From contig JAENRP010000038.1 in NCBI GenBank assembly GCA_024741835.1, positions 162,549 through 226,548 on the forward strand: a DNA stretch of 64,000 nucleotides. Direction: 5' to 3'. Made by a program: the position numbers and the translations under genes. A model generated the notes under the pieces. That model did no database searches, was not told the DNA's origin, and saw only the letters and a list, made by a program, of their open reading frames with translations. Source of the stretch: Diplocarpon mali. Its lineage: Eukaryota; Ascomycota; Leotiomycetes; Helotiales; Drepanopezizaceae. Shown here piece by piece: positions 5,021 to 63,898 of this stretch (positions are counted from its first letter, which is position 1; each line of letters begins with the position of its first letter).

Positions 5021-6641
<1,621 letters not shown>

Positions 6642-27194: not shown

Positions 27195-27700
27195 TATTAA
27201 GCTTAAGTAAGTCGGCGCAGTAGGTAAAGGAGGCTTCTAGAGGTCGATGGTCGATATATTGGTAAGAGTTAGGGAAGGAAGGTTACCCCTTTCTTTCCTA
27301 TAGCTATATATATATTAATATCCTACTGACTAAGCAGTAGGGTTATATAATAATATATTAGAGTGATAGCTATATTACCTATCTTAATACCCTTACTTAG
27401 ACCTTACTTTAATTGACTTATAGTTGGGAAAATAACAATTATCCTTTTGCGCTAATCCAACTCTTAGGTATCTCTTTAAATTAAAAACAATCAATTAATA
27501 GTAACCTTTATTAAAATCACCAATCTTACTCGCAAGGCGGGACTAGGAGTTAAATTTCTTAAAAGCGTTCCTTTATAAGACTATATGACTTGACTCGCGG
27601 TCTAGGCCTAAGAGTCGATTTAAAAACTTTCCTTTATAAGACTACGTGACCTAACTCGCAGGGCGGGCCTAGGAGTCGTCCTTAAGCCTACTAAGCCCCT
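27195..27700 (-). mobile_element. copia A1, fragment 1 (3' part)
   Basis: Colinear with 59883-60390 of copia A2. It stops exactly at the gypsy-1 LTR, carrying the left copy of the target duplication CCCCT at 27696-27700. It holds three copies of the 23-bp module. The terminal LTR boundary of the copia element could not be set. Confidence 0.8.
27528..27676. repeat. three copies of the 23-bp quasi-palindromic module
   Basis: Copies at 27528-27550, 27593-27615 and about 27654-27676. All run from ACT to AGT with a GGCGGGCCTAGG-like or TCTAGGCCTAAG-like centre. The same three occur in copia A2 at 60216, 60282 and 60343. Here spacing is 65 and 61 bp, not multiples of three, fitting a non-coding part of the element. 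Confidence 0.85.
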
Positions 27701-27993
27701 TGTGACGACTGGGAGTATAACCTCTGCTCGGCACCGATATGTATACGAATCATATAGCAATATTAATAGAACGTCTTAGTAATAACTTAGAATCAATAAC
27801 TACTAAGCCCTAAAGGAGTAGAAGGGTATAGAATATATATATAAAGAAAAGAGGGTTACCTGCTTAAGAGGATCTGAACCAGATGCTAACTAGGGGTAAC
27901 CCGGTTTTTTAGCCTATACTAAGATTGCGCCAAGCTGTAACCGAACCGGGTACAAACCGGGTATAAACTAGCATATAGTAATAATCTGTTATA
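27701..27993 (-). repeat. gypsy-1 3' LTR (left)
   Basis: It is 293 bp and pairs with 33768-34060. About three dozen differences separate the two, all transitions by eye. This copy kept the TGTG terminus. Confidence 0.93.
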
Positions 27994-29925
27994 TTATCCC
28001 CCCTTTTGAAAAAAGCTTGTCCTTAAGCGTCTAACTATAGGTTTATCATTACCTATTTCATTATAATTATCTATACTATTAGTGTAGGCCTATATTTAAT
28101 TAAGAAGCCTTGCGGGCGGGCTTAGGAGGTTTGGATTTTCCAAATGAAATTCGCAAAGCTTGAAAGGCGTATATATAAAATTAGAGGCTAGGTACTATTT
28201 TAAATCAATATTGCGGCCAACCTATAAGGCGCGGTATATAAGCGTACCGGCTTGCTTTTGTATAGTAAGCAGGCTCTCTACTTCGTATTCTTATTCTCTT
28301 ATAATATTAATAGTAAGAGGGGGTTTATTTACTTAATCATTTAGAGGGGTATTAGGGTCCCTTTAGAGGCGATTTAGGTAGAAGATATTATATACCTTTA
28401 TAAAGTTAAGTAGCTTTAATTAGTATAAATTAAACACTTTCTCTACTATCTTAAATGGGCCGGCTTTAGGGAAGCTAAGCTTTTTAAAAGGCCTATCTAT
28501 AAGGTAGGGATGCATATTTAAGTATACTAGATCGCCGACTTCGAAAGTAGTAGGGCGATAAGAGGTATTAGTGGCGTTTCGCATATATTCCTAAGCCTTA
28601 AGGATATAAGATTTAATAAGGGTTTAAGCTTTATAATATCTTGCGGAGTATTTAAAGGCGTCTTATCGATTAAGCTTTTAAAAAGGGGACTCCGAATTAG
28701 GTATATTAAGCTTTTAGTCTTAATTAGTACGCAGAGCGTACTTATGTACTACTTTAAATGGCGATAAGCCACCGAGGGAGTTATAGGGGAGCGTTAGCTA
28801 GGCGAAATCCATTATAGGTAAGAATTCGCTCTAATTGTCTTAATAGTAACTAATAAAGGGGCGGAGGCGTTGCGTAAGGTACTGATTATAATTCTTAGTT
28901 TAGCTGTCGGTTTCTGGGTAGTAGGCCGAACTAAGGGTCAGTTTCGTACTTAAAACGGAAGTAAAAGCTTTTTAAAAGCTTAAGATAAATTAAGGGCCTT
29001 GGTCTAAGGTGATTATTAAAAGGGGACTAAAGTAGCGATATATATAGTATATATAGAGTTAGGCTAACTGATATAAATTAGTAGTCTTTTAGTAGGGTAT
29101 TAAGATTGCCTACTTATTAAACCGATTGATAATTATAAGAACGTTATTATAGCTATGCTTATCTTTATTAAAACTTATATAATTTATAGTTATATGCTCC
29201 TAAGGTCGGCTTAATACTAAGAGGGGTTAGAGTAGACTAGGTTTCTTATCTTAAGGAACTTTACTTCGTCTATAGGTATAGCAGTTCTTATAGTACTAAG
29301 AGATATATCGGCGTAGATTCGGCTAGTAATACTATAAGGAGAGAAGCTAGTAGGTTTTACACGCGCTTAGATGCGCGATAGCAATTTGATTATAAACCTC
29401 TTATATAAGTAGCGTATAGAAGTAGTCTATATTAGGTACTACTAGCTTACTTTAAAAGAGAAGTAAATCTCCTTCTATTATCTAAGGGTTAGTCTTAGTT
29501 AGGGCTATATTAGACCCATTCTAAAGGGCTGCTTAGCAATAGACCTGGTAAGGCCTATATTATTAATTAGTAGCTAGTACTTAGTTAATAATATAGAAAG
29601 TAAAGGAGAAAGCCGAAACTTCTTTAATAGAGACTAGGTTCTTAGCTATAGTCTATTCGCAAAGCTATTTAAAGAGGATTCAAAGGTCAATCTAATCCTA
29701 GTATAATAATATTATAAGGCGGTTATTACGTTTTATTATATTTTGATTATCCAACTTATTAATATAGCGAGTTAGGGCATTAGCAAGAGGGTTTTTAAAG
29801 CCAGGTCGGTAGGTAATTGTAAAGTCGTATTTAGAGAAAAGCTCGGCCTAGCGGGCCTATCGAAAACTAAGGTTTTTTATAATTATAAAGTACTCGAGTG
29901 CTTTATAGTCTATATATACTATGAT

Positions 29926-30126
29926 TTAGTAGGGTGCTCTTGCGAGCTCGGCTTTGAAATGGCCAAATGATCGAATAATAGCTAGTATCTTCTTATTGTA
30001 TATAGCGTAGTTTAGCTCGGCCGGTATTATAGTCTTGCTATAGTAGGTAACTAGGAGCCATTCGGACCCGTATCGCTGTAATAATATAAAGGCGACTATA
30101 CTATTAGAGGTATTAGTTTCTAGCAT
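29926..30126 (-). pseudogene. gypsy-1 RNase H remnant
   Basis: A 66-codon open stretch reads YYSKTIIPAELNYAIYNKKI then LAIIRSFGHFKAEL, the characteristic Ty3/gypsy RNase H block. It lies on the minus strand about 420 bp downstream of the RT YLND motif. The flanking frame is broken by stops. Confidence 0.85.
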
Positions 30127-30549
30127 ATAAGGGAGGTCTTGCTTATAGTGCTAGAGGATTAAGGTATGCGTAAGAGCTTCTTACAGCTATAGGAAGCTTT
30201 GCTTGCATTCGGGAGTGAATCGGAAGGGAATATTATTCTTAGTAAGGTATATTAAAAGGATAGTAATAAGATTATAGTCTTAAATAAAATAATAATAAAA
30301 GTTGTAAAAACTAAAGAATGATTAAATACCTTTTATAATAGAGGGGTAGGTTTAATTCTCTACTACTACTACCTTATTAAGGTTAACCTAAACGCCTTCG
30401 GTAGTGATTATAAAGCTAAGGTACTTAGTCTTTATAATATTAAACTTATACTTCTTTAGGTCGGCCTGCAGTCTTGTATCCGATAATTGCTAAAGGACTC
30501 GTTTTATATGCGATTTATAATTAAGTCGGTTAGTAGAGTAAATAAGGAT

Positions 30550-30561
30550 ATCGTTTAAGTA
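30550..30561 (-). pseudogene. gypsy-1 reverse transcriptase active-site remnant (YLND)
   Basis: The minus strand reads DFYIVYLNDILIYSTN, the Ty3/gypsy RT palm motif with the first catalytic Asp changed to Asn, which needs a single G-to-A change. This substitution alone is expected to abolish polymerase activity. Confidence 0.88.
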
Positions 30562-33500
30562 GACTATATAAAAATCATTAAAGTAATCGAAAAGGATGTC
30601 GTTTATATACCTTTAATAGGTAGCAAGGCTATTAGTAAGGCTAAAAGGAAGTACCTTATACTTATATGCGCTATATTAAGTTCTGAAAGTGGTAAGCTCT
30701 TTAGAGTTAAGGTCCATTCGGATCCGGTAGAAAGCTTGCCGTATATCAAGCTTTATGAAAATCTAGGCGCTAGCTAATCGAGCTAGGGTCTCATCGATTA
30801 AGGGTAAGGGATATCGATCTTTATAAGTAAGGTTATTAAGCATATAGTAGTTAATATAGAATCGTAAGGAGCTATTAGCCTTTTTTACAAATAGTACTAG
30901 CGTAGCATAAAGGGCAGAGGAGGCCTTGATAAATCCTTTATTAAGGTTGTTAATAAGGTACGCCTTTACTATTTCCAGTTTAAGTATAGATATCTTATAT
31001 AAGGGGGAGTATTAGAGGGCCTTTTGAGCACCTTTGGCTATAAGCTCGATTTTATAATTATAAGGTCAATAGGGCGGCAGCGTATTAGAAGCGGCTTTCG
31101 AGAATATATATCAGTACTCCTTATAGGCGGTTAGAATCGGTTTCTCAATTGGTTCAAGGGAGGCAGTTAGAATAGCTATCGAAACCTCTTTATTATAGTA
31201 TCAGTTTAAGAGGGTATCAATTTCTTATTATTAAGTTAGATATTCTTAATTGTCTTAAATTAATTGATTAATTTTATAAAATAAGGTATTAAAAAGCTCT
31301 GCGCTTTGCTAATTCTTAGCTATTATACGAAAAGCATAAGCTGAAATTGCGCATATATTTAAAGATAAAAGGGGAATTTTGCACTTTGCTATCTACTTGC
31401 AGATGCGTTTCAAGGTTGAAATAGAGGAGGGAGCCGAGTTAGGCTTAGTCGTATTAAGCTCTTGCTTTATAATTAATATATTATAGGAGTAGTCCTTAGA
31501 AAAGGTATTACCTTTAACTTAAGGTGGAGTTGGGGTAGAATCGGTAAAAGAGTATTTAATTAAAATAGGAGGTGATTTAAAAGGGAGGTAGGAAAGGGTT
31601 TCCTAGCATCGAGCTTTATACTTAGAAAGGGACCGTTCTAGTGCTATATTATATTGAGTTGCATTTCGCTAATAATATTGATCTAAGTTTTATTATTTAA
31701 TATTAGTGATTTCGATATTCCTTATAAAAGAGACGGTAAGGGGATAGGAATCAGGCTAGGTTAGCTTATAAGAAGTATAATTAATAGAAACTTTATACTC
31801 CTTAAGCTAAGCTCTTTTTAAAATCACTTTATAGTTGCTGAGGTTAGTAATAAGAAAAGGAGTAAAAGATTAAATTTGCTAATTGATATATAGATTAAGC
31901 AGTATATAATAAGTGATAGTACTACCTTAAGAACCGTTGTATCCCTTAACTGAGAAGGGTATAGGGAGTATATAAATCAATAGTTTAAAGAAAGAAGATA
32001 AAGATTTAAGTAACGCCGAATTAATTAAAGTATACCTATTAGTACTTGTATTAATTAATGCTGATACCTTATAAGAAATACCATTCTTTAAAAGTAGGAT
32101 CCGTTTTATTATCGAATTGCCGCTAAGGAGGTTTCTTAAATCAAGGTATCGTATATTACGAAGTGCGCTTAAGAAGGAGGCTTTACTTAGGCAAGGGCGT
32201 TTCCCTTAAGAGTCGAAAGGGAAAAGGGAGCGCTACTATTATCTTATTCGGCCTTAGGGTCCTCCTCTTTATCGCTACTCTATCCTTGGCTATTATTATA
32301 CTTAAGCTTATTAATGCGAGAGTTATAATACTTAAGAGTAATAGAGGGGGATTTTAGCCGTTTATCAAACTGATTTTTTTAATCAGCTAGAGGAGGAGCG
32401 CTAAGGGTATCGGTCTAGCGCAGAGGAAACGAGGGGGTTCTGGACTTAGCGAAACCGAGGGTAGGGGTACTATACTAAGGTCGATTCGGATACGATTTAA
32501 AAAGGTTTCTTAGCAAGGGATTTGATTTATTATTATCTCCTTATTAGGCATTTTTACTAGAATTAGCTTTAGCTTTAATGCCTAATCTCTCTCTATATTA
32601 TATCTGATTATATAGCGTCCTCTTGGCGCGCTATCTGGCGTCTTCTTATTAAATAGCAGTAACCTACTCGTCTAATATCCTAGTCTTATGCCACTTCTAT
32701 ATAAGGGGAGTTCGGAGGCGTTTTAGGATTTTCTTCCTAAGGGCGTTATAAAGTCGACTATTATTATCGATCTTTATTATAGCAGCTAGTCGGGAGAACT
32801 TAAGGTAGAATTCCTAAAAAGACTTATTAGCCTTTATATAAAGGGTAGTAAACTCAATCTCAGCTTCTTTACGTTCTACTAAATTAGTTAAGAACTTAGC
32901 AAGTTGACTTACTAGGGTTTCGGCGGTGATTCGGGCGTCCCTATTAAGTACCTAAGGGGTTAGCCAGTCCTTAGCTATACCTTTAATCTAATTTAAAATG
33001 TAGTTAAGCTAGGCCTATTCCCTATAGAAGTAGGGGTAGTAAAGCTTTAAATTATTAAGTACGCAAGCCTCTTAGTATTTAGCATAGTAATTATAGCTAT
33101 CGGACAGTTTTTAAGTAAGGTTTAGTATATTATAAATATAGGAGAGGTTTGGCTATTAAGCTAGAGGCAAACTAATAGTATATCAATTAGAGGAAGTAGA
33201 AGAAGGATCGTCTTAATTATTGCATTGCTTACTGCGCGCGGTAGAGGAAATAGAAGGAGGTAAGTCGAAGTTTATAAAGCGTTAAGGACGCGTAAGTAAA
33301 CTAAAGGTATTTCGGAGTTTAAGTATAGGTATTTTCTTAATTAATCTTAGGATGCTTTCAAAGGCGCTTCGGAGGTTATTTAAATCTCTTTCTTAATCGA
33401 TTAACTATTAGTATATAGAATTCAGCTTACGGTTATACCTATTACATTCTTTTAATATAGATATGAGTTGTACCTATAGGGAATCTAGTTCGGCTTATAA

Positions 33501-33767
33501 TATAGTGACTTTAAGGCTATTATTATTAGCCAGTAGGAAGTTAGTAGGAAAGGTACTAAGGGTAATATTAGCACCTCCTTAGGGGGGAGAGCAAGGGGTC
33601 TTTAAAGACCGAGTGATAGGAGGAACTATTCTTTAAGCTTATAGCAAGAGCTTAGTATAGGTCTTTTAGTATATTATTATACTTGTTAGGGTTTCGGTCG
33701 ACTACTAGGAATAATATAAATAGATATTATAATGCTATCTCTAGCGAAGCGAAAGAGTTATTAATAA

Positions 33768-34060
33768 TATAACGACTAAGAGTATAACCTTTGCTCGGCA
33801 CTGATACGTATATAAATCATATAGCAATACTAATAGAACGTCTTAATAATAACTTAGAATTAATAACTATTAAGCCTTAAAGGAGTAGAAGGGTATAGAA
33901 TATATATATAAAGAAAAGAGGATCACCTGCTTAAGGGGATCTGAACCGGATGCCAATTAGGGGTAACCTAATTTTTTAGCCTATACCGAGATTGCGCCAA
34001 GCCGTAACCGAACCGGGTACGAACCGGGTACGAACCGGCATATGGTGACAATCCGTCATA
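33768..34060 (-). repeat. gypsy-1 5' LTR (right)
   Basis: It is 293 bp and pairs with 27701-27993. Its outer end CGTCATA is followed directly by the second CCCCT target copy. Its inner end TATAACG corresponds to TGTGACG of the left copy. Confidence 0.93.
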
Positions 34061-34928: not shown

Positions 34929-36944
34929 CTACCCCCCCCCTTTGAAAAACTACGCCTGCGCAATTGTATCTATAGGCGTATTATCCTTTAGGTCCCTATA
35001 ATCGTCAACTCTATTATTATATGACCTAAGCCAGCTTAATAGCGCCTTTAATAGCCCTTTAGCCTAAACGTTTTTTAAATGGAAATCTTAAATAGCATAC
35101 GGCGCTATTATAGCATTAGAGCATAGGTACCATTCGAGGTCTTTATTAGCTCTTTTCCACTTAATCTAATATTCGAGCTTCTAAGCTCAAATATAAGATC
35201 CAATTATTACTTCTATCTCCTACTCCTCCTATTCTAATAGTACTTTAATTAGGGCAAGAGGTTCCCGAACTTATCCTAGCAAGGGGTTGGGAATATATTT
35301 ACGCAGTAAGTGCAAGTGGAAAATAGGGTAGATCGAATAGAGCGAATCAGGCAATTATAGCTTCTAGCTTTCTCTTAGCTTTTCTAGTACTTTTACTAGG
35401 CCGTACCACTTATTAGAAAGCTTTTAGCTCGGCCGATCGAGCTTCTAGTTTTTAATACTAATTAGTATATTATCTCCTATAGTCTAATCAACTGGCTAGC
35501 AATAGAGGTCTGCAAGCTATTTTATTTTAGCCTATTATACTTAAAGAGATAATTGAGCGAATTGGACTACTTTTTAAGCTCTAATAGCTATACAAAGCGC
35601 TATTTTACGATTTACTTTCTTAGTTGCTATCTATAAAGGCTCTAGGTTAATTAAATTCCAAGAGGAGCAAGCTTTATAGCCGTTTAGCACTTAGAAAGGG
35701 GAAATTTGCCCTAGCGATTCGTAAGGCAAGGTCAATTAGGCAATATCTATTAAAGGCAAGAGACGACTTTAATTATCTTAATAGTATAAGTAGAACAGTC
35801 TAAGGCGTTATTTTAAGTACTGGTTTATAATCTTAGTTTAGCTATCGATATTAAGGTTATAAGCTATAGTTAGCTTGACCTTTATACTTAGTATCTAATA
35901 GAGTTCTTTTTAAAAAGCAGAAACGAATTAAGCGCCTCTATCTAATAGAATCGAGTCGGGTATGCCGAAATAGCGTATCTAATGAATTAAAAACAATTCT
36001 ATAAGGCCTTTTGCATTAACCGTCTTATAGCATAGGATTAATACTGCCTTCTTTAATAATCGGTCTATTATTACTAATGCAAAGTCGTAGCTAAGTTCAT
36101 TAAGCGGAAGCTTTATAAAATCTATTATTAAGTATTAGTAAGCTCATTTAAGAATTAGCAAAGGTTATAAGAAACCGGGGGTCTTATTATAATAAGCTTT
36201 CATTCTCGAATAATAATAGTTCTAGATATAAGTGCTAACGTCGCTGCTAAGGCTTTTCTAATAGTATTTTCTTCCTATTAGAAGTCTTATTTTCCCAATT
36301 CTAGCGTATACGACGCAAGGTTACTTATATATATAACGAATTAGGGCTATCTGCAGTTTAGGAGGTTAGGATAGTATAATAAGTCTACCTTAAAAGAAGA
36401 GTTTGCCTTAGCTAAGTTTATAGTTAAGGCTATGGCTCTACGCCTTATCTCAGAACTTCTATAGCTTAAGGGAGGTCTTATTAGCTTAAATGACCTTATC
36501 GATAATATGGTAGTTCGCTATATTATACTCGACCTTAGACGTCAGGTTAGCAGGTGCCTCTATTAGTAAGATAGGCACAATCGTCACTTATGGGCCAGGC
36601 CTAGGAGTGGAATTGCCTTTAATAGCAAGTACTTCTATAGAGAGCTTGTTATTAGATAAGAGCTACTAGTGGCGTAAAGCTCGTTTCCTAGCCTTAAGAG
36701 GGGTTAGCTCCTAGTCTTAATATAAGAGTGTATTAGCTAGCGTATTTATTATACCTATTTAGTATATAATAAGGAAGTTAAAGTTAACGAAGAACTCCGC
36801 CTAGCGAGCTTGCTAGGCTATTAAGTCCTTAGTTATTATAAAGTACTTAAGGGCTTTATGATTTATATATACGTATACTATTTTCTAAGCCTTAAGTAGC
36901 TTTGCCTTATACTAATAGAACGATCTAAAAATCGCTAAGAGCTC

Positions 36945-38487: not shown

Positions 38488-38600
38488 ACTTGCGGGCCAG
38501 GACTAGGAGTGAGATTTAAGTTCGCAGATTTTACTCGCAGGCTAGGACTAAGAGTGAGATTCGAGTTCGCAGATTTCACTCGCGGGCTAAGACCGGGAGT
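38488..38600. repeat. three 23-bp modules with a 45-bp period, in the coding part of gypsy-2
   Basis: Copies at 38488-38510, 38533-38555 and 38578-38600 are exactly 45 bp apart. On the minus strand the segment is one uninterrupted frame (38343-38630, 95 codons), the longest in this element, repeating LTPSPGLSPRVKSAN-like 15-residue units. Open coding survives here although the rest of the element is full of stops. Confidence 0.88.
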
Positions 38601-40352: not shown

Positions 40353-40375
40353 ACTTACAATCTAGGCCTAGGAGT
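40353..40375. repeat. 23-bp module, single copy in gypsy-2
   Basis: It runs from ACTTACAATC to GGCCTAGGAGT and lies toward the gag end of the element. Confidence 0.75.
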
Positions 40376-41257
40376 AAAATCGGTACTAAAAGAGGTTTCT
40401 TCTTAAGTAGGCTTAGGAGGAGGAATATCTCTAGGACTAGGGTTGGCAATAAGGCCTATAGAACTGGAACTGGTAGCAGTAAGGCCTATAGAACTAGTAG
40501 CAATAAGGCCTGGTAGTAGAGGTGCGGTTAACCTTTCACTTCTCTTAAGTGGTATAAGATTAGAAGTCATAAGTATTAACTCTTTTTATATTATCTGGTT
40601 TAGTCTAAAGGGACCTAATGCTAAATAGTAACCTATTTAAAAAGGGGAAGATCAGTATAAGCAGAGCTATATATGTTCTTAAAGCCTTCTAATAGAGTAT
40701 ATATTAAAGTATTATAGGTTTATAGATCTTAAGAAAGAAGGTTTTACTTTAAGATTACGTTTCTTTATTAATTAGGAGTTATAATAAGGTTGCTTAAAGG
40801 TATAGTGCAAATCTAGGGAAGTAGGGTTTAAGGATCTAAAGCTTATCACTTTACTAAAGTTGACCTAATCTTTAATAGTATAGTATAACCTACTTAAGCT
40901 GATTAAGTCTCTATATATATATATAAGTATAGGTCTTCTAATTTCATACCCGAGTGTTTCGAAGGAAGGAGTAAGGAGCTTTGAGAAGTATAAGAAGAGT
41001 TATTGATAAGTATAGGTCGATAGGGAGTATAAAGAAGGTCGATGACTTATTCGCAAGGAGGGTTCTTCGAAGAGTCGAGTTATATTTAAGGGAAGGAAGG
41101 AGTAAGGAGCTTCGAAGAGTAAAAGGAGAGTTATTAACAAGTATAGGTCGATATATTATAAAGTGTTTATAAGGAAGGGAGAGAGTCAAGAAGAGAAAAG
41201 TTATTATATTACTTTAGGCAGCAGCTTACGCTAGCGAAGCAAGGGTATAGTAAATAA

Positions 41258-41502
41258 TATAAAACTAAGGGGAGACAACACAAGAATAGGCCTAAGGGAA
41301 GACCTAAAAACAAGAGGAGGAAGCACCACAAGCGGGCTCTCTTAGACAAGATGTTAGGAATAAGTCCTAAGTATAGGGTATATTCAGTACTATAGCAACA
41401 CGCGCTGTCTCTATATATAGAAGATGGCCCTTTTATCCTCCTACTATCCTGCGTTAATTATATAATATATATTATAAGACCTATCTATCTTAGATCTTTA
41501 TA
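41258..41502 (-). repeat. gypsy-3 3' LTR (left)
   Basis: It is 245 bp, from TATAAAAC to CTTTATA (inverted termini). It pairs with 56737-56981. Several ACA sites here are ATA in the right copy, a CpA-to-TpA signature. Confidence 0.93.
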
Positions 41503-42049
41503 TATATCCTAAATAATAAAAGTAGTAGCCCCTACTACTATTAGTAAAGAATATAGAATAATATAGGTTAAGGCAATAGTATATTAATTACTAGCAAACC
41601 CTAAGTGCGAGAAAACTAATATATTAAAAGGCTTAAACTAGGGCTATATTATTATTAAAGGTAAAAGAAAAAAAGGAGAGTTTTTTTTTTTTTTATATAT
41701 GCGCTTTTCACCTATAGGCCGGGCCTAGGAGTCAGAAAAAGAAACTAGTAAAACAAATAAACAAACTATAGAATTGTAAAAAAAAACAATTAAAATAGAA
41801 CTAACCTAGGCGTTAGTTTTCCTTAGTTCTCTTTAAAGGATAGGGAGAACTATTACTAGATAATACTCTCTTTGCCAAACGACCACTTCTTCTTATAGCA
41901 TTGCTATTAGTGTTCAATAAGGTAGGTCTTGGTATAGCGGGAGCTTCTATACTCCTTACAGATGCTAGTATAGTATAACGGCTTCTGCTAATAGGGAGAG
42001 AGACTTATATAATAGCGTTATTATTATTATTATTGTTATTATCCTTAGG

Positions 42050-45000: not shown

Positions 45001-45232
45001 GAAAATCATTAAAGTTTAAAAATCCTTCTTCGACCGCAGAGATTCTATAATTCAATACTTTAATAAATGAGTTTAGGAATACCTATTATTCTATTTTACC
45101 TAATGTTCTATAAGTACTTACTATATCTTCTAATAATCTTAGTAACTTGCCCTCTTATAAAAAGCCACCCTCTAATATTAGCTTATTACTAATAGTATTT
45201 ATTGACTTGCTGCCTAAGGTAACGACTGACAT
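42050..45232 (-). pseudogene. gypsy-3 accessory gene 1 (unknown function)
   Basis: A degenerate frame can be followed from an ATG at 45230-45232 (MSVVTLGSKS, then INTISNKLILEGGFL) through VEEGFLNFNDFLKNK and LKIKGIDYEKFL, with scattered TAG/TAA codons that look like former Trp or Gln codons. Farther on it reads RELRKGGFLTISNNYIEV near 42640-42700. The left limit is approximate. Its position between integrase and 3' LTR is where some retroelements carry an extra gene. No recognised domain; it is not evidently an envelope. A diverged paralogue lies immediately upstream. Confidence 0.6.
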
Positions 45233-45849
45233 ATTCTTCTTAGGTATGGCTTTCTTATTTGAGCTTAATAGTACTATAATGAATTAGTTAGTAGGGGAGG
45301 TAGCTTTAAATAAAGAAATAATTATTTAAGAAAGATTAATAATATAAGAGGCCTATATTAGAAAAGATTGATAATAGAAAGATAATAGTAGTAGTGCTAG
45401 TATTATAGGTCTAGTAGGGTTATAGAGAAAGTAAAAAAGTAAAATCATTATATAGGAAGAGGCTTATTTATAGAGTTTGGAATCGCGCTAGTGTATAAAG
45501 GAAAAGTGGGTATAATAAGCTTAGAAGTAGGAATAAAAGTAGGGTATGACGTATATAAGGACTTATAATTAGTAAATGATAATTCTTTAAAGGTAAGGAT
45601 AATATTTCAAAGGTAAGCATTAGAAAGTTGTATATAAAGGAAATAATCAAAGGGTAGATTATATAAAGAACGAAGTAGAGTAAAGAATATATATAGAATA
45701 GAATAATAAATAGAGAATAAAGAGGTATAGGTATATAGAAAGTAGATAATCCTAAAAAAATTCAATATCTAATTCGCAATTTTTCTAAATGGTTTTTAAA
45801 AGAGGGATAGACTATGATTCTCTAGATCGAATCGACTTAATTGTTAGTT

Positions 45850-48800: not shown

Positions 48801-49160
48801 TTAAATAGATTCTTCCTTTTTATTTTAATCTATTTTAAAAGTATCGGCCAAGGTTATATATTAATTTGCGTCAGTTAAGAATTCCTCTCTAGAGATTCCC
48901 TTTAGTCTTAATTCTTCAGTTAAGAAGTTGTTAAATTAGAGAATTCCAAAGGCTACCTAGGTTAAAAGGTTACTAATAGTATTTGCGTAAGTTAAAAGGA
49001 GTTTTTATTACTTTATATCTCCTAAGGCTGCGTAGGTTGATTTAAAGCTCTCTAATAATATAATAGCTCTACTATCCTAAGAGAAGTTTATAACTAGTGC
49101 TTATTTATCCCTTATTGCAGTAGATAAAACTATTTATAAGTTCTTTAAAGGTATATTACT
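45850..49160 (-). pseudogene. gypsy-3 accessory gene 2 (paralogue of accessory gene 1)
   Basis: Matching blocks occur about 3.9 kb to the right of those in accessory gene 1: STYAALGDIK against STYRTLGKIE, FNNFL and LRLKGISREEFL against FNDFL and LKIKGIDYEKFL, and NPYKTGGFIAFCNNYIAI against RELRKGGFLTISNNYIEV. Similarity is clear at protein level and weak at DNA level, so the duplication is old relative to the insertion. Limits are approximate. Function unknown. Confidence 0.58.
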
Positions 49161-51229
49161 TATAAAAGATAGGGAGTATAAATAAGAGAGTTTAATAGGG
49201 TATAAGAATTAAAAGGGTATATAAGCTGTAATAGGTTTATTATATATATATTAAGGAAATTGGACTTTTTTATTTATTATTTAAAGAAAGTAATAGGAAT
49301 ATTGTAATTAAAGGCCAATATTAAGAATGTAAAATAAGTTAAAGCAGGTAAGAATTTAAGGTGATCTTAAAAGATCTATATCTTAAATAATAAAGGAGGC
49401 AACCTTGCTGAAAATGTAAAAATAAGGATTAAAGGAAGGTAAGATAATTAATAGGCTAAGAAATCGTTTAGTATTCCCGCTTACATTCTTTAGATATTTT
49501 AAGAATAATGATTTAGAGTTGCGATTAGTTAGGTATTTTAATATTCTTTACTTATAGGACTGGCTTATAAGTTAAATTGGAAAAATCTTAGTCTTTATCT
49601 AAAGGTTTAAAATTGCTTATATTGCTATTAGTTCTTATAGAAGATTCGGAGGTTATATCAATTTCTAATTCGTCTTTTAAAGGGAATAAGGTCTGGTCGC
49701 GTTAATAAAAGCGCTTTAGTTAGTTAGCTACAAAGGTTCCTTTAATATCGACTCTATTAAGTTCCTAAAGAGAATAGTATCCTTTTTCTTTCTATTTAAA
49801 CTTAACCTTAAATGGACTAAGCTATTAATAGTTAAGTTTAGTATCTACAGATATATTAATACTTCTTATAATATTATAGACTAGGATAAGATCATCTTTT
49901 TAAATAAGGTGCGTTTTAAGTACTTTAGAAGTAGCCTACGCTTTCTTAGCTTTTTCCTAATATTATTTCTTTTATAAAATGATTTCTTTTATATCTATAT
50001 CTTAAAGCTTAAGTTATTAGCATCTTATTATAAGTAAATCGGAATAGTTCCGAATTTGACTATAATTAAACAATCTTTAAATAGGCTATTAGGATTTAAA
50101 AGGGAGCTATGCCTCTCTACTATAGATAAGGAAGAATAATATAACTCTAATTAGTTTATAAATTATCGTTCGATAAGTAAAGAGTATTTTATAAAAGCGT
50201 TTTATCTAATCCTTAAATCCTTTATAAGTAACTTTAGATAGACTATTAAGAATATTATAGTATCCTTATTCTACTATTCTATTAGCTTTTGAGTTATATA
50301 TTAAGATTTAAACCCGTTTAATGCTATATTTTTATAAGAAAGCTTCAACTACTCCTTTGTTTTTAAGGCCTTTATTAATAGTTAATCTACTAAAAAGTCT
50401 ATAGCAATAGACTATATCTTCCTAAAGGAACTTTGCAATAGATTTAAAGTTAGCAGATCTTAAAGGTCGTCCTTTAGGCCATTTTAATAGGTCTTCCTTT
50501 ATTAAAATAAAATATATTATCCTATTCTCGATAGTTAGTACTTATATAATATTAAGGCTGACTTTATAGAAAAGGCCTAATGGCTAGGTTAAGAATAAGG
50601 GATTTTCCTTATAACTAGGTTTTCATTTCTAATAAGGGATGCAACTCTTTATAAAAGCTTTGCAGTCTTTAAAAGAGCCTTTTTAAAAGAATTTTCTTAA
50701 GAGTTAATAGTAAGTGGACTTAGCTCCTTAGTGGCCAGTTTCCTTATAAATATCCTAAATAGCCTTAGCCTTTAGTTTTTCGTTATCTAAGCAAAGTTGT
50801 ATAAGGAATAAGTTATCGCTCCTTTTAAATAATTATCTTTCTTATACTAGATAAATCAGAGCTTTAGCTTTGAATTTCTGAAAATCCTTAAGAGCAACTA
50901 TCTTTAATCGTTTAAGTATAATTAAAAACTTTGCGATTTCTTTAAAGTTACTTAAGTAATTAAGTAATAAAATTCTCTTATTTAATTCGCAGGCTAGGCT
51001 TGCAAGTCGAGTCCCTTTGAGGCAATATATTAATAGATAACCAACTTCGTTTTCTACCTACTTATTAATATCTGTTTCATCTTCTTTAATCAAATTAAAG
51101 GGGTAGGGCTGAGTTCTTCTTAAAAGGCCGTTTGCAATAGTGTTTTTCGTTCTTAGAATATATTTGACTTTAAAGTCCATTAGTCTTATTTAAGCAATCT
51201 ATTTTATTAGTAAGGCTTTAGGTAGGTCG

Positions 51230-51970
51230 CTTATAGCTTTATTTAATTGTTCTATTAATACTTTAGCATTAGTTTTAAAGATAAAGTAAGTGCTATAAAG
51301 GTCGCTTCTTATCTTTTTTATTGCTTTTAAGGCTCTTTTGCATTTTTATTTAATAGTATTATACTTTATTTCTACTAGATTCTAAAGACTACTTTTAAAG
51401 TGAGCTAGATGTCTTTTCTATTAGCTATTAGCTTATTAAAGGATAGCACCCTATTTAATTAAGCTTGCGTTAATTATTAGTATTATTGGCCTAGCGTCAA
51501 CTTTATAGTCTATTTTAATTAGATATAGCGCTTTAAGTAACGCTTACTTCAGTTGTTTTATAGCCTCTATTTGAGGTTCCTCCTATTGAAACTCAGCCCT
51601 TTTCTAAAATAAGGCGTAAATAGGCGCTGCCTTTTTAGCAAAATCCTTAATCTAAATACAATAGTATACTATAATGCTAATAAACGCGCGAGCTTTTGCT
51701 ATATTATCATACCTCTTCCATTTATCGATTTTGAGTACTTTAGCCCTTTAAGGACTTCGGCTATTAGAATTAGTAATAAAACTAATAATTTCCATTAATA
51801 GAAGATAGTATTATAACTTTAGATTAACTATTGCTTTTACCCTTTCGAATCGTATAAGCACCTAGTCTAAGTTTTAAATATATTCTATTATAAATCGTTA
51901 TATACTAGGAAGAACTTCTTTATAGTTATAGAATGATCTTGATCCTTTTACTCTTATATCATTTATATAA
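51230..51970 (-). pseudogene. gypsy-3 reverse transcriptase / RNase H remnant
   Basis: The minus strand reads SYINDIRVKGSRSFYN at the RT active site (catalytic Asp changed to Asn at 51958-51969). Further left it reads VEIKYNTIK, CKRALKAIKKIRSDLY and TNAKVLIEQLNKA, an RNase H of a different gypsy lineage from gypsy-1 and gypsy-2 (RVKG-type RT). Confidence 0.82.
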
Positions 51971-54900
51971 GAGAGCGCAATATTAGGTATATAATCTATT
52001 AGTATCTTATAGATTACTTAAACAAATTAAGCGATCGAATTTATAGCTCTTTAAGGTAATCTTATTATCTAAAGTAGCTTAAGAGGGGTTTGAATTACTA
52101 TTATATCTTTCGATTTAATATTAAGAATGAATTAGTTATATCTAAAGAAGAAGTTAATAAGAGAGCTATAGGTTAATCTTATAAATTCATTTAAGAACTT
52201 ATCTATATTCGAAGGAACGTTGGCGTCCTTAATAATTACTCGGTTTATCTCTACTACTACTATTATTAATTTGTAAGTTCCCTTCTCTTTCTTAGCAATT
52301 AAGAACCATTTATTCTTATAAGGGCTATTATAGAACTTGAGAACTCCTTACTTTAGCCTATCCTTTAATATTTCGATTACCTTTTCTTAAAGAGCTTTAA
52401 GGACCTTAAATGTTTTCTCTTACTAGGCTTTATAAGGTATTATCTTAATCTTAATATAAGGTATGACCTCTTCTTAAATCTGGCCAAGTTCTATTTAATT
52501 AAAAGCTAAGGCGTCCTTTCGATTTATTAAGGTTTTATAAAGTAGTTTGCATTCTTATTCTATTAAGTTATCTCTAATTTTTAGTATATTGAAATATTCT
52601 TTTATTAGCTAATATCTGATAGGTTTATTAGAAAATCTACTTATAATAAACTTATCGAATTTGCCACCTAGCTTTAGAGGTCGAAGCTTCTTATCTTATT
52701 TAAACCAATCGTCTAGTCCTTTAGGCTTTAAGCTATTAGAGATTCCCTAATCCACCGGTTGTACTTTATTAGCCTTGCTTTTATATATAGTTTAAATATT
52801 AGCTAGTACTATACTTCTTTGCTTCTTTCCTTTTTTATCAAATCCTATAAAACGGTCCGAATTTTCCTTTTTAAAAACAAATAAAAGATTTTCTAAGTTA
52901 TTAATTTGAAATGCGTAAATAGAAATATTATTAGTAATTTTATTGTTTTTCACTTATAGGTCTGGCTTATAAATAGTTTTTAGGTTTTTTAAAATGATTA
53001 GTGAATTATCGAAATTTATAAAACGAACTCTCTTTTCTACCTTATTTTTCTTTTTTCTTAATTATTAAGCCGATAAAACGCCGATTATACCATTTTTTAA
53101 AATTCTAGATTTGACTCTTAGTCTGGGACTATAAGTTAAATCGCTATTATTCAAAATCGGCAAACTCACCTTTCTTTCGCTATAACTCCTCGCTAGGTAC
53201 CTTCCTTTACTAGTATTAAGCTTAGCCCTTATGCTAGCTAATTGTTTTTTAAAACCTTATTTTAAAATTCGGCTATATCTTTTGTAATAACTATTTATCT
53301 TTTTAAAGATCGATCTATATTCTAAAGGCTAGCTTTTATAAGCCTATCTTTAAGATAGTTAAATATTAGCTAAGATTTTAAAATAAAGGGCATTTTTAAA
53401 AGAATATTATTTAAGGAATTCTTTATTATTAGAAAGTTAGTATAATTAATAATTCCTTCGACTCTAACCTTTACGTTTTTCACTTATCTATTAAAATTGT
53501 ATTTCAATTTAAAGATAGTCGAATAAATAAGAAGTCGATTGCTAATGATTATTAATCGAGCTATTTCTGCCACTTTTCTAATTATTATATTAACTTTTAA
53601 ATCATAATCGATCAAAGCCTTTGCTTTAACTAATTCTTTTATAGAATAAATAATAATAGGGCTTTTTATTGCAACTGCTAAACAATTTCAATTGATATTC
53701 TAAGATATTAAAGCTATTGCTATAATATTATAGTACCTTTGGGTTCTTTTATCTTTTGTAATCTAAAGATATTTAATTAAGGCTAGGTGCTTCTTAGAGT
53801 TCTTTTGTATTATAATTTCCATTTCCTTATTATTATTTAAATCTTTAAAAGCAACTGGGATATACTTTCTTAGTACTTTATTAAAGCGTCTAATTAAATT
53901 AAATAGGTCTTTGAATATAAGGTTAATTTGCTAAGCTATAACATTCTCTATAGCTTTCTTTATTGTAGTTGAACTAGCGTATTTATCGACGAATTTCTCC
54001 TATTTTAATATCTATCTCTTTTACTTAAGGTCAAGGGTTTGTGTAATAACTTTAACTTTTTAATTTTTAAGCTTAAAGCTATCTTTATCTATTATATCTT
54101 TAATCAATTCGTCTACTATATCGGCTTTATCTTCGTCTACTGCGGTTCTAGACTATTAAGTGTCTTTTAGCATTTGGACTTTATATTAAGATTCCTGAGT
54201 TGCACGCGTTGATTTCTGGACTTTGGCTGGTTTTATTAGTATTAGTAGAGTAGAAGATCTAGAAGGATGCTAAGAATTCTAAGGGTTCTTAAATACAGAA
54301 GTAGTATTAATATTAGTTGAAATATTATTATTAACCTATCTTAAGATAGAGATGCCTTTAACTTCTATAGCTGTTTGATCAAAAGCTAGGTCCTTAAGAA
54401 CTCCCTTAGGTAGATTGCTAGTTGGACCTATATATATATAAGTTAGAATTTTAGCGTTTATATTTATAATACGCTATCGTTCGACCAAATTCTTGTCCTA
54501 TTTTGTACTATATATTATCGTTTGAATAGTCTATAACTATAAGCGATTCTAGTGCTTTTTAATAGGAATAGCTTCTAGCCTAGGATCCCTAATGCAAAGC
54601 ATCCTATACTTATTAATATATATGACTTTAATATTAATAAAACAAAGGAAAAGAGGGCAATTGTTATAATACTTATATAAAGTGTAGTTAGGTTCTTTAT
54701 TATTGCAAAAGTTGCAAGTTAGTTGTCTTCTATTGCTATTCCCTTAGTACCTTATAGCATTAATATTAATAAAGTGCTAATTAGGATTAATTTCTCCTTT
54801 TTTAATTAACTATTGAGTTCTTATATTAGCAGGTTATTCCAAATAATAAGAAGCAGGAGTCTGGTAATAGGAATTATTATATTAGCTTATAGTGGCCGAG

Positions 54901-56736
54901 TTTTGCCTATTACTAAATTAAGGAATATGCTATTTTTCCTATAAGAGATTATTAATCCTAGTTTCTAAGCTCTAGATTTAGAGTTCTATAAATTAGGTCT
55001 TAAGTTCCTTAATTCTAAGGTTGGATTTCACTCCTAGGTCGGGCTTATAAGTGAAAGATATGACTATTAGGTTCTTCTTTGCCTTCTTTATAACTTCTAA
55101 AGCCTTTAAGTATTCTTGGACCAAGCTCTTAAGGTCTTTAATATAAGAGGGAGTAGGGGCTTTTTCTTACTCTATAGCATTAATGGTTCTTTTATTAAGA
55201 TCTGATTTTAAAGTAAAGGCTGCGAATTCCTTAAATAAGGCAAAGGTTATAAGGTCTTGCTTATCGATCTTAAAATACTTGATAATCTTATTTTAAAGTC
55301 TAGTAGGTAATCTAAGTAAGAAAAGGCGGCCTCTTTTAACTTTATTAAGTATTTTCTAGTTAATTAAGATATTTGATATATAAGTAAAAGTCCGATAGTA
55401 GTTCTTAAGTTCCTTAGGAGTATAAGTAATTAGAATAAATTCCTTTAAGAAAGCTAGGGTATTACGAATCTGCTATCTATCAAATTTGCGAAATTCAGAT
55501 TTAAGGGCCTTAATAAGGAGTTCTTATAAATTATAAGTTTTCTATTCAGGGAGGGACTTGATAATATCCTTGCTTATATAATTATAGTAGTAAGGAAGTC
55601 GAGAAATTATATCCTCTTATATAATATTAAAATTGTAATAAGTTTTCTTATATTGCTTAAGGAAATTAGTGATATTAGCGCCTATAAAGTAAGGAGCGCT
55701 AAGGGAACTAAGAAGGGGAAAGTGACTAATAATAGCCTTAAATGCGGCTATTATCGTTTTATATTAACCGTTTAGGTTAATAGAATCTATAAGAGGCAAA
55801 GGGAAAGCTTTAATATTGCGAGATTGATTATTAAAAGGAGTACTTCGAAATTCAAAAGGGCTTAAAGAATATTTAGAATCTGAGTTAATCTTAAAGTAAT
55901 TAAGATAAGTTTGAAAAGATTTAAATAAAGAGTTAGTAAAAAGTTTAAAATTATTATTATTTTTAGTATTTTCTAATATTAATATTGAAAAAGTAGGTAA
56001 TAGTCTTAAGTTATTTAAAGACGTCTTTTTATCCTTTTACTTATAGGCTAGGCTTAGGAGTGGAATTCCGGATTCTATTAAAAGTTTAATCTAAGTTTGC
56101 TAAGAGATTCTAAGTAGGTGCTAAATAGCTAATAGGAGCGTTGTAACTAATTGCAATAAGATAAGGTTTATCTAATTAAGGACTAATTTCTAAGATAAGG
56201 TTTATATCTAAGATTCTTCTTAGCCTTTAAGCTAATTCCTATTAGTCCTTAGAATAAAGGGGTCTTTAAAGACGATTCTAAGGCAATTTTTAGAGTTCTA
56301 TTAAGCTAAGGCGGCTGAATTATCGGATTCGGATTTCTAAAGATTCTAAAAAGGCACTTCTAATTGGAGTTTACGCTTAATATTACTTAAGTACTTAAAA
56401 CTACTGCTATTTGAGATTGCTATTATAGGGTTCGCTAAACTTTTCATACTAGGAAGCTGAAAATTCCGAAAATCTTAAAGTTAAAGAAGAAAATAGGGGT
56501 TTTCAAAGCAAAGCTGAAAAGGGAAAATCTAAAGTTATTAATAGTTATTAAACGAAAATCGATAGTTCTAAGTAACTAGGCGATTAAGGATAAGGGTTTT
56601 AAAGTTGATTAAAATGCTATAAGTGTTTCGAAGATGTATTCTTCGAAAGGCTAGTCTCTTATCTGCGAATTAAGAGATCGATAAGGTTGTATAAGGACGG
56701 AAATCTTAAGAAATCGGTCCTTGCGTAGGTTACTAA

Positions 56737-56981
56737 TATAAAACTAAAGGGAGATAATATAAGAATAGGCCTAAGGGAAGACTTAAAAATAAGAGGAGGA
56801 AGTACTATAAGCGGGCTCTCTTAAATAAGATGTTAGGAATAAGTCTTAAGTATAAGGTATATTTAGTACTATAGCAATACGCGCTATCTCTATATATAGA
56901 AGATAGTCCTTTTATCCTCCTACTATCCTGCGTTGATTATATGATATATATCATAAGACCTATCTATCTCAGGTCTTTATA
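56737..56981 (-). repeat. gypsy-3 5' LTR (right)
   Basis: It is 245 bp, pairs with 41258-41502, and is more heavily mutated than the left copy at CpA sites. Confidence 0.93.
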
Positions 56982-59053: not shown

Positions 59054-59882
59054 TATAAAACAGAAGGGGAGACAACATAAGAATAGGCCTAAGGGAAGAC
59101 CCAAAAACAAGAGGAGGAAGCACCATAAGCGGGCTCTCTTAGACAAGATGTTAGGAACAAGTCCTAAGTATAGGGTATATTCAGTACTTATAGCAATACG
59201 CGCTGTCTCTATATACAGAAGATAGCCCTTTTATCCTCCTATTATCCTGCGCCGATTATATGATATATATTATAAGACCTATCTATCTTAGGTCTTTATA
59301 TATATCTTAAATAATAAAAGTAATAGCCCCTACTACTATTAGCAAAGAATATAAAATAATATAGGTCAAAGCAATAGTATATCAATTATTAGCAAACCCT
59401 AAGTGCGAGAAAACTAATATATTAAAAAGCCTAAACTAGGGCTATATTATTATTAAAAGTAAAAGGAAAAAAAGAAGAGTTTTTTTTTTTTTTTTTTTAN
59501 GTTTTTTTTTTTTTTTTTTAATATGCTTTTCACCTATAAGCCGGGCCTAGGAGTCAGAAAACGAAACTAGTAAAACAAATAAATAGGCTATAGAATTGTA
59601 AAAACAATTAAAATAGAACTAACTTAGGTATCAGTTTTCCTTAGTTCTCTTTAAGGGATAAGGAGAACTATTGCCAAATAATACTCTCTTTATAGAACGA
59701 CCACTTCTTCTTATAGCATTGCTATTAGTATCCGACGAGATAGGTCTCGGTATTGCAAGGGCTTTGGTAGTTCGGGCAGATACTAGTATGCTTTAGTAGC
59801 TTCTACTAATAGGAAGAGAGACTTATATAGTAGCGTTATCGTTATTATTATTATTATTATCCTTAAAGGAATTATTAATAAT
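59054..59882 (-). mobile_element. truncated second copy of gypsy-3 (3' LTR plus about 580 bp)
   Basis: The LTR (59054-59300, 247 bp with two single-base insertions) and the following internal sequence match 41258 to about 42060. Similarity stops at about 59882, where copia A2 starts. A 23-bp module (59532-59554) matches the one at 41710. The T-rich run includes an undetermined base (n) at 59500. Confidence 0.88.
59481..59519. other. poly-T run with an ambiguous base
   Basis: Two T runs of about 17-18 flank AnG, with the n at 59500. The corresponding run at about 41680 is shorter. Length and sequence here are unreliable. Confidence 0.9.
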
Positions 59883-60215: not shown

Positions 60216-60365
60216 ATTCATAAGGCGGGATTAGGAGTCAAATTTCTTAAAAGATATTCCTTTATAAGACTATATGACTTAACTCGCAGTCTAGGCCTAA
60301 GAGTCGATTTAAAAACTTTCTTTTATAAGACTATATAACCTAACTTATAAGGCAGGCCTAAGAGT
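60216..60365. repeat. three 23-bp modules in copia A2
   Basis: Copies at 60216-60238, 60282-60304 and 60343-60365 correspond one to one to those at 27528, 27593 and 27654 in copia A1. Confidence 0.85.
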
Positions 60366-63300: not shown

Positions 63301-63476
63301 CCTTATATAAGCCCTTTAATTTCTTTAGTCTTAAATGCGCGAATCTTCTATATATTAGCTAATACCTTAATAGGCTTTCGGCTTTTAATAGCTTTAGTAG
63401 CCTATTGTTAGTTAATACTTTATTATTAGCGGTTAAAAAGGACTAGTGATAGCAGTTTAAGGTTTTGCTATTTTCC

Positions 63477-63898
63477 AATTGCGAGCCTAGCTTAAGAGTC
63501 GTTTTTAGTAAAACCGCAAGATCTACTTACAGTCTTAACTTAAGAGTCGTTTCTAACGAATTTGCGAATTTCACTCGCGGTCCTAGCTTAAGAGTTATTT
63601 CCGCGAATTTCACTTATAATCCTAGCCTAAGAATTATTATTAGCAAATTTGCAAAATCTACTTGCGATCTTAGCCTAAGAGTCATTTCTACTAAATTCAC
63701 TTATAATCTTAGCTTAAGAGTTATCTTTAAGAATACCTTATAATCTACCTATAGTCTTAGCTTAAGAGTCATTTTCGCAAGTTTTATTTGCAATCCTAAC
63801 TTAAGAGTCTATTTATTATTCTTATCCTTGCTCAATTGTATTAAGGCAAAGAGTGCACTTTCCTTAAAGGAATCTACTTATAAGTCTGGCCTAAGAGT
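63477..63898. repeat. cluster of nine 23-bp modules, spacing always a multiple of three
   Basis: Copies start at 63477, 63525, 63573, 63612, 63660, 63699, 63747, 63786 and 63876. The steps are 48, 48, 39, 48, 39, 48, 39 and 90 bp. The centre is TCTTAGCTTAAG-like. Plus-strand codons read SLRV repeatedly; minus-strand codons read TLKLGPRVKFAN-like units, which fits the direction of the element. Most of the cluster lies in one 92-codon open frame, long for this block. Confidence 0.88.

What the first reader, a model, noticed from the sequence alone, without database searches (positions are those of the whole stretch)
27528..63898. A 23-bp quasi-palindromic module repeated about 36 times across unrelated retrotransposon families
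Seen directly: a unit of near-constant 23 bp, ACT + 17 nt + AGT with centre near GGCTAGGCCTAGG, occurs in copia A1/A2, gypsy-1 (a weak copy at about 28108), gypsy-2, gypsy-3 and the truncated gypsy-3 copy. About 32 remain after removing copies explained by element duplication. The hosts are different lineages (copia, and two gypsy RT types), so common descent of the elements does not explain it. The unit is GC-rich in an AT-rich block and sits in LTR-proximal, gag, pol and accessory regions. Inference: a very short non-autonomous mobile module, or a sequence under selection in these elements (protein motif, RNA structure, or binding site).
Basis: partly seen in the sequence, partly recalled or inferred. 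Interest (0 to 1): 0.86.

Follow-up and report, generated by a model that had tools for sequence, protein, structure and literature searches.

The report
Shared palindrome in fungal retrotransposons
Thousands of copies of one short, near-palindromic DNA word sit inside several unrelated families of jumping genes in an apple-blotch fungus and have been kept almost unchanged, which suggests that these families share a recognition signal whose partner is unknown.

Summary
The repeat is real. A profile finds 35 copies in the AT-rich block, none in the 27 kb gene block and none in shuffles. Genome-wide, one strict pattern has 686 exact matches in 49.4 Mb against 0 for its reversed control; I extrapolate to about 9,500 copies. 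The genome is Diplocarpon coronariae.

All 28 loci sampled through two patterns lie in four LTR-retrotransposon families: two copia (copA, Y), two gypsy-like (X, G3). A fifth (G1) has one shorter variant. Less mutated copies fit ACTCSCGGKCCNGGMCCGSGAGT.

Recent mobility is not supported: 938 of 963 spanning alignments keep 23 nt, none shows a clean empty site, and one position is shared exactly by old paralogues. It is constrained as DNA: 2 of 580 fixed columns vary by transversion against 426 of 6,750 flanking columns, synonymous positions are fixed too, and copies also lie in 3' UTRs. Yet 14 of 15 clear coding positions share one reading phase, which is unexplained. A hairpin is disfavoured: pairing positions do not covary.

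Best reading: a dispersed recognition site for an unknown trans-acting factor shared by unrelated LTR elements. Constraint is shown; factor and benefit are inferred.

The parts
27528..27550 (+). module, copA 3' UTR, unit 1
   Evidence: profile score 27.1; place in element
27593..27615 (+). module, copA 3' UTR, unit 2
   Evidence: score 31.1
27654..27676 (+). module, copA 3' UTR, unit 3
   Evidence: score 31.8
28108..28129 (+). variant module (22 bp) in gypsy-1, about 115 bp from its 3' LTR
   Evidence: same place in 10 of 10 G1 copies compared; below the profile cut-off
36586..36608 (+). module in X, in the stretch between RNase H and integrase (by eye); 1 unit here, 2 in L004 and L059, 4 in C24
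   Evidence: score 33.1; unit numbers
38488..38600 (+). three modules of X in 45-bp tandem (38488, 38533, 38578), upstream of RT, in frame on the minus strand
40353..40375 (+). module in X, 5' (gag) side
   Evidence: score 27.7
41250..56981 (-). G3, a 15.7-kb gypsy-like LTR element (LTRs 41250-41502 and 56729-56981), coding on the minus strand, 14 modules
41710..41732 (+). module, G3 3' end, after the ORF
42129..42151 (+). module, G3 3' ORF, end of paralogue B
42951..42973 (+). module, G3 3' ORF, paralogue B; aligns exactly with 46900
44181..44203 (+). module, G3 3' ORF, paralogue B, no counterpart in A
44367..44389 (+). module, G3 3' ORF, paralogue B; aligns within 2 residues of 48286
46015..46037 (+). 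module, G3 3' ORF, end of paralogue A
46900..46922 (+). module, G3 3' ORF, paralogue A
48286..48308 (-). module, G3 3' ORF, paralogue A
49550..49572 (+). module, G3, after integrase; frame unclear
50985..51007 (+). module, G3, between RNase H and integrase (by eye), read in phase 2
52952..52974 (+). module, G3, between protease and RT, phase 0
53114..53136 (-). module, G3, between protease and RT, phase 0
55030..55052 (-). module, G3, gag side; frame less clear
56039..56061 (+). module, G3 5' region; frame unclear
59532..59554 (+). module in the truncated G3 copy (duplicate of 41710)
60216..60365 (+). three modules (60216, 60282, 60343), 3' UTR of the second copA copy
63477..63898 (+). array of nine modules (63477, 63525, 63573, 63612, 63660, 63699, 63747, 63786, 63876) in copA pol, between the Pol_BBD region and a region with a weak integrase match, phase 0 on the minus strand
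27701..34060 (-). gypsy-1 (G1), 289-bp LTRs, inside copA; comparison element without a full module

Best explanation
The module is a conserved, nearly strand-symmetric DNA site: two inverted 11-bp half-sites, ACTCSCGGKCC, around one free base, with weaker AT-rich flanks. It is scattered along the bodies and 3' UTRs of several LTR-retrotransposon families. The most likely working is that a dimeric sequence-specific DNA-binding factor, from the host or from one of the elements, recognises it and that all these families profit, for example by escape from silencing or by better transcription. Families carry several sites roughly 1-2 kb apart, and local tandem duplication of 39-72 bp units adds more. 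Shown: sequence, copy number, carrier families, homologous positions within families, constraint on 20 of 23 positions including synonymous ones, placement in coding and non-coding DNA, no covariation of pairing positions. Inferred: that a protein binds it, that the factor is shared, and what the benefit is.
For: Counts and controls. Transversions: module 0.0088, flanks 0.0257. Around 115 sites that I classed as phase-0 coding, flank third codon positions change at 0.049, but module third positions 3, 6, 18, 21 at 0.0007, while 9, 12, 15 change at 0.053. Column count: 2 of 580 fixed columns against 426 of 6,750 flank columns, over the 29 of 35 window modules with at least 4 aligned copies; flanks partly overlap. 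Non-coding copies: copA trio between the end of the pol frame and the 3' LTR, G3 3' end, G1 variant. One clear coding copy in another phase. Both orientations to the coding strand: by my reading, 12 loci b-a, 4 a-b, 7 a-a. No covariation at 9-15: G-C 136, T-C 140, G-A 32, T-A 32. Spacing more even than random, combined P 0.0007 (G3 0.025, X 0.004, Y 0.14; copA left out, neighbours under 250 bp merged, tested after seeing the data). One position kept exactly across diverged paralogues.
Against: 14 of 15 clear coding positions are in one phase (P 2e-6 for a named phase; merging two paralogue pairs and the pair 3728/3890 leaves 11 of 12, P 5e-5); a pure DNA site predicts no phase. The free positions 9, 12, 15 are exactly synonymous ones in that phase. 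Sites with two b halves are almost absent (2 of 179), so the halves are not wholly independent, as a simple dimer site would allow. In the phase-2 cluster (F11, 7 sites) the module changes more than its flanks (0.025 against 0.003), all at positions 9/12/15. No binding protein identified. No related fungal genome could be searched. Homogenisation between copies could imitate constraint. Query sites were chosen by a profile, although their aligned partners were not.
Confidence: 0.4

Rival explanations
1. Peptide-level unit: the module encodes a short T-[PR]-x-P-G-[PL]-[RG]-V peptide that serves as linker, docking or processing site between domains of retrotransposon polyproteins; the DNA likeness is secondary.
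For: 14 of 15 clear coding positions in phase 0; placement between recognisable domains, partly by eye: upstream of RT in G3, X and Y, between RNase H and integrase in X, between Pol_BBD and integrase in copA; array spacings 39, 45, 48, 54, 72 are multiples of three; free positions 9, 12, 15 synonymous in that phase.
Against: Third positions 3, 6, 18, 21 are fixed. copA trio in a 3' UTR at 65-66 and 61 bp spacing; G1 and G3 3' copies non-coding. One copy in phase 2.
Confidence: 0.26
2. A very short selfish palindrome that once inserted into many elements, favouring AT-rich targets (weak RAYYYN flank consensus), and is now kept alike by gene conversion or template switching.
For: Shared by copia and gypsy at mostly non-homologous places; flank consensus; unit number varies 1-4 at one place of X and 2-4 in Y; position 15 differs among G3 copies at two places with almost unvaried flanks (window 50985 and 55030).
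Against: No clean empty site in 963 alignments; no target-site duplication seen by eye; 28 of 28 sampled loci inside LTR elements, none in about 44 kb of gene-rich DNA; a position older than the paralogue split.
Confidence: 0.2
3. RNA-level signal: palindromes in the element RNA pair within or between RNA copies (dimerisation, packaging).
For: Papers on Ty1 and Ty3 RNA that hold the terms dimerization and palindromic sequences are listed (listing and abstract starts only; that palindromes take part is recalled). The sites are within the presumed transcripts.
Against: No covariation at 9-15 genome-wide; at 5-19 only 50 of 179 copies can pair; up to 14 copies per element; no Rfam match.
Confidence: 0.1
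4. Artefact: a GC-rich remnant left because the unit has few CpA/TpG steps and so resists RIP, with no function.
For: Module CpA+TpG 3.7% of steps against 12.5% in the gene block; the block is depleted in CpA/TpG.
Against: The AT-rich block itself has 4.2%, so the module is hardly poorer; and it does not explain why one 23-mer recurs at over 20 places in four families, nor the lack of transversions.
Confidence: 0.03

Closest known systems
VANC target motifs of VANDAL transposons (Arabidopsis; PMC5735166, passages read)
   Same: Short motif repeated many times within elements, enriched in them, expanding by tandem repetition with gain and loss between copies.
   Different: VANC21 motif is 9 bp (YAGTATTAY), not palindromic, mainly non-coding, rare in other families; here 23 bp, palindromic, coding and non-coding, shared by copia and gypsy. 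No VANC-like gene identified.
Rickettsia palindromic elements (passages in PMC10969869, and PMC2996958)
   Same: Palindromic units found in frame inside coding sequences, typically in unstructured segments.
   Different: About 150 bp, in bacterial genes; here 23 bp, in retrotransposons, also non-coding, no empty sites.
PARCEL palindromic repeat-coding elements (PMC2996958, passages read)
   Same: Palindromic DNA that encodes tandem peptide repeats.
   Different: 75-nt units encoding a 25-residue amphipathic repeat; here 23 bp, also in non-coding DNA.
Short mobile palindromes and GC clusters of fungal mitochondria (listings; passages of PMC7218506)
   Same: Very short palindromes spread through a genome (GC-richness of GC clusters is recalled).
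   Different: Organellar, mobility stated in the title of PMC7218506; here nuclear, found only in LTR elements so far, no recent movement seen.
Palindromes in Ty1/Ty3 RNA dimerisation (listing and abstract starts only; role recalled)
   Same: Palindromes within LTR-retrotransposon transcripts.
   Different: Up to 14 per element here, shared by unrelated families, no pairing covariation.

Membership tests
VANC-type anti-silencing motif | Motif dense in the elements and rare elsewhere | tested here: met
   28 of 28 sampled loci in the four families; 0 in about 44 kb gene-rich DNA; the 3 hits of that GC class are the copA copies at the block edge
VANC-type anti-silencing motif | Tandem expansion differing between copies | tested here: met
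   X site 1, 2 or 4 units; Y array 2-4 units
VANC-type anti-silencing motif | Confined to one family and mainly non-coding | tested here: not met
   four families, mostly coding
VANC-type anti-silencing motif | Element-encoded protein binds it and removes methylation | not testable with these tools
   pieces of the G3 3' ORF have no Pfam match above cut-off
Mobile palindromic element (RPE, GC cluster, MITE) | Empty versus filled sites | tested here: not met
   938 of 963 alignments filled, no clean empty site; only copies within families could be compared
Mobile palindromic element (RPE, GC cluster, MITE) | Target-site duplication | tested here: inconclusive
   none seen by eye in listed flanks; no formal test; weak shared flank consensus
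Mobile palindromic element (RPE, GC cluster, MITE) | Scattered outside a single class of host sequence | tested here: not met
   samples only
Structured RNA element | Compensatory pairs | tested here: not met
   9-15: 168 pairable, 172 not; 5-19: 50 of 179
Structured RNA element | Match to a described RNA family | tested here: not met
   0 Rfam matches at gathering threshold in 27000-64000
Protein repeat/linker (peptide-level) | In frame in coding DNA | tested here: met
   14 of 15 clear positions in phase 0
Protein repeat/linker (peptide-level) | Synonymous positions free | tested here: not met
   9, 12, 15 free; 3, 6, 18, 21 fixed
Protein repeat/linker (peptide-level) | Only in coding DNA | tested here: not met
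   copA, G1, G3 non-coding copies

The most novel reading that the evidence does not exclude
One trans-acting system is shared by unrelated copia and gypsy elements of a genome: they converged on, or captured, the same 23-bp palindromic address, spread it along their bodies at 1-2 kb intervals, and fitted it into their reading frames as a P-G-rich linker, so that one factor handles most of the retrotransposons of the genome. This would be a common cis-code among competing transposons; my searches of the open-licence library (listings) showed no description of one.
Probability: 0.3. Interest if true: 0.9.

Novelty: new variant of a known kind. Interest (0 to 1): 0.72.

Why it matters
Sequence-specific signals of transposons are usually private to a family (my general knowledge). 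A 23-bp site kept under constraint by two copia and two gypsy-like families, inside and outside coding sequence, would mean that unrelated retrotransposons depend on a common factor. It would give a direct handle (DNA pull-down with a 35-mer) on how elements live with RIP and silencing in a filamentous fungus. The contrast between fixed and free synonymous positions also makes the DNA-versus-peptide question testable.

Tried and rejected
Mobile insertion with empty sites: looked for in 963 alignments, not found. Longer private palindromes around each copy: flanks of a site are on the whole no more self-complementary than flanks of different sites. Hairpin: no covariation. Hypermutable toggling of positions 9/12/15: striking in cluster F11, but over 29 references 7 of 87 such columns vary against 6.3% of flank columns, so I do not claim it. 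Clean insertion in X relative to module-free G1 at the RNase H-integrase linker: X looks longer there, but the linker aligns too poorly to place a border. Relatives elsewhere: a protein search with the window's array ORF found none at E 0.001 (136 candidates); the copA piece found two relatives, of which P0001 starts downstream of the array and P0002 (Podosphaera aphanis, 228 aa) shows no module peptide by eye. Viral and prokaryote scans gave 1 and 4 hits, not followed up. Pfam on ten pieces of G3, mostly of its 3' ORF, gave nothing above cut-off. Literature: listings unless said otherwise. A genome paper of the species (PMC11527701, passages) gives copia and Ty3 content and has 0 occurrences of 'palindrom' and 'rip' in its main text. 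Limits: the profile was trained on both strands of each site, so its perfect symmetry is by construction; asymmetry was judged on single copies. Coding frames come from stop density in single copies, read by me; RT, RNase H and integrase in G3 are by eye (protease above cut-off, integrase E 0.01). The species name rests on one protein. I labelled the copA trio 'LTR' in notes and before one search corrected it to 3' UTR.
Full report
What was checked. A profile built from 13 seeds and refined three times finds 35 sites in 27528-63898 of the window, 0 in 1-27000, 124 in 200 kb of another contig (C24), and 0 in Markov shuffles at a score above 14. Window sites score 16-33; the next best place scores 7.4. 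In the whole genome the pattern ACTYRYRRKCTAGGCYTARGAGT has 686 exact matches, 0 for the reversed control. Nine of the 686 lie in the first 200 kb of C24, where the profile finds 124, so I extrapolate to roughly 9,500 copies. This is rough.

Where it is. The window belongs to Diplocarpon coronariae: the mitochondrial IF-2 protein at 14055-17450 is 100% identical over 97% to the record of that species. The AT-rich block shows a RIP-like signature, CpA and TpG at about 0.4 of expectation and TpA at 1.3. All 8 loci cut by the first pattern search and all 20 that I chose from the stricter pattern fall in the same four families by sequence; these are pattern-chosen samples, not a census. copA is a 6.1-kb copia element (193-bp LTRs; RVT_2 and Pol_BBD above cut-off, gag just below). 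Y is a 5.6-kb copia element (261-bp LTRs at 94%; RVT_2). X is a 7.2-kb gypsy element (249-bp LTRs at 91%) whose RT pieces are 48-58% identical to those of gypsy-1. G3 is a 15.7-kb gypsy-like element with 253-bp LTRs (aspartyl protease); a search with one piece gave 460 first-look candidates, of which 150 were scored and listed. Gypsy-1 (G1) holds one 22-bp variant about 115 bp from its 3' LTR, in 10 of 10 copies compared (40 matches genome-wide). The elements are nested: G1 and X in copA, G3 in X.

What the unit is. Less mutated copies fit ACTCSCGGKCCNGGMCCGSGAGT: half-sites ACTCGCGGKCC (a) and ACTCCCGGKCC (b), joined as a-b or a-a, around one free base; b-b is almost absent (2 of 179). Common forms such as ACTTATAGG look like C-to-T and G-to-A derivatives. 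Flanks have a weak shared consensus, RAYYYN before and its complement after. CpA/TpG make 3.7% of steps in the module, 4.2% in the AT block and 12.5% in the gene block; this may help it to stay GC-rich under RIP but does not explain why it recurs.

Descent and mobility. Sites fall into 20 flank clusters, some of which merge neighbouring positions. Of 963 alignments that span a site, 938 have exactly 23 nt there (11 have 22, 6 have 24, 8 other lengths), and no clean empty site was found; some of the 963 pair units of one array. Arrays change length: 1, 2 or 4 units at one place of X (window, L004/L059, C24) and 2-4 in Y. The G3 3' ORF consists of two paralogous halves; with modules masked they align at score 930, against a maximum of 56 for 50 shuffles made with unmasked sequence. 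One module pair (C12 copy 9945 and 13896; window 46900 and 42951) aligns exactly and another (8559 and 12480) within two residues; B has one module that A lacks. These positions are therefore old.

Constraint. Without a profile filter on the aligned partner, transversions are 0.0088 in the module and 0.0257 in the flanks, ratio 0.34 (0.24-0.49 by resampling 169 sites, which are not fully independent). Transitions are not lower in the module (0.163 against about 0.11-0.14). In flanks of 115 sites classed as phase-0 coding, third codon positions change at 0.049 against 0.022-0.023 at the others, which supports the frame. Inside the module third positions 3, 6, 18 and 21 change at 0.0007, and 9, 12 and 15 at 0.053. 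In the groups classed as 3' UTR or element ends the module has no transversion (F1 20 sites, F6/F7 13 sites), as also in F10 (7 sites). The phase-2 cluster F11 (7 sites) goes the other way, 0.025 against 0.003 in its flanks, all at 9/12/15. Over the 29 of 35 window modules with at least 4 aligned copies, 2 of 580 fixed columns and 7 of 87 free columns are transversion-polymorphic, against 426 of 6,750 flank columns. Constraint thus acts on DNA letters that the protein does not need.

Coding or not. Stop-density maps of one copy per family, read by me, put 14 of 15 clearly coding positions in phase 0 (G3 3728, 3890, 8559, 10830, 12480, 12666, 13896, 14718 in C12 coordinates; X three; Y two; copA array one) and one (G3 5857, between RNase H and integrase) in phase 2; binomial P 2e-6 for a named phase. 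Left out as unclear: G3 803, 1812, 7292, 9945, 15133 and Y 5118; 1812 and 9945 would be phase 0 in the likeliest frame, 803 would not. Merging two paralogue pairs and the pair 3728/3890 leaves 11 of 12 (P 5e-5). The phase-0 peptide is T-[PR]-x-P-G-[PL]-[RG]-V. Non-coding copies exist: the copA trio downstream of the end of the pol frame at 65-66 and 61 bp spacing, the G3 copy near its 3' LTR and the G1 variant. So the peptide reading explains the phase, and the DNA reading explains the fixed synonymous letters, the non-coding copies and the phase-2 copy. I weigh the DNA reading higher and state the phase bias as its main unexplained fact.

Hairpin or dimeric site. If the two arms had to pair, positions 9 and 15 should covary. 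Genome-wide the four combinations occur 136 (G-C), 140 (T-C), 32 (G-A) and 32 (T-A) times, which is independence (symmetric sites can count on both strands, and element copies are not independent, which does not create a lack of covariation). At 5-19 only 50 of 179 copies could pair. So the halves vary independently at 9/15, as expected of a dimer's binding site, but not at 5/19, where b-b is missing. Sites lie in both orientations to the coding strand (12 b-a, 4 a-b, 7 symmetric, read by me). Spacing along G3, X and Y is more even than random, combined P 0.0007 (G3 0.025, X 0.004, Y 0.14), a test made after seeing the data, with copA left out and neighbours merged.

Verdict. A constrained, dispersed, palindromic DNA site shared by several LTR-retrotransposon families of one fungus. 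The nearest known thing in behaviour is the VANC target motif of VANDAL transposons, which it is not: other length, symmetry, element class and range across families. The factor is unknown and nothing here shows binding. Whether the site exists in other fungi could not be tested, because no related genome was available (the genome search states that this genome has no relatives held).

Noticed in passing
window about 41800-49000 (C12 copy 7860-15053): G3 carries a long extra 3' ORF region made of two diverged paralogous halves of about 1000 residues each, with no Pfam match above cut-off in the pieces tested; a candidate for the trans-acting factor.
   Followed up: partly
window 27654-27700: Gypsy-1 is inserted in copA 24 bp downstream of a module; a single case, other nesting junctions were not tested against modules.
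   Followed up: no
window 27193-64000: Deep nesting: copA interrupted by G1 and by X, X interrupted by G3, followed by a truncated G3 and a second copA.
   Followed up: partly
window 14055-17450: Intact mitochondrial translation initiation factor IF-2 gene in the gene-rich part, used to name the species.
   Followed up: yes
L059 about 4690-4818 and the C55 array (L042): Spacers between modules in the gypsy X array and the copia copA array also look alike (TTCGC..ATTTC before the module), hinting at transfer of module plus spacer between unrelated elements.
   Followed up: no
window 6434-6620: Four ACT-N17-AGT strings at 41- and 82-bp spacing in the gene block, unlike the module in sequence; perhaps a minisatellite.
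   Followed up: no
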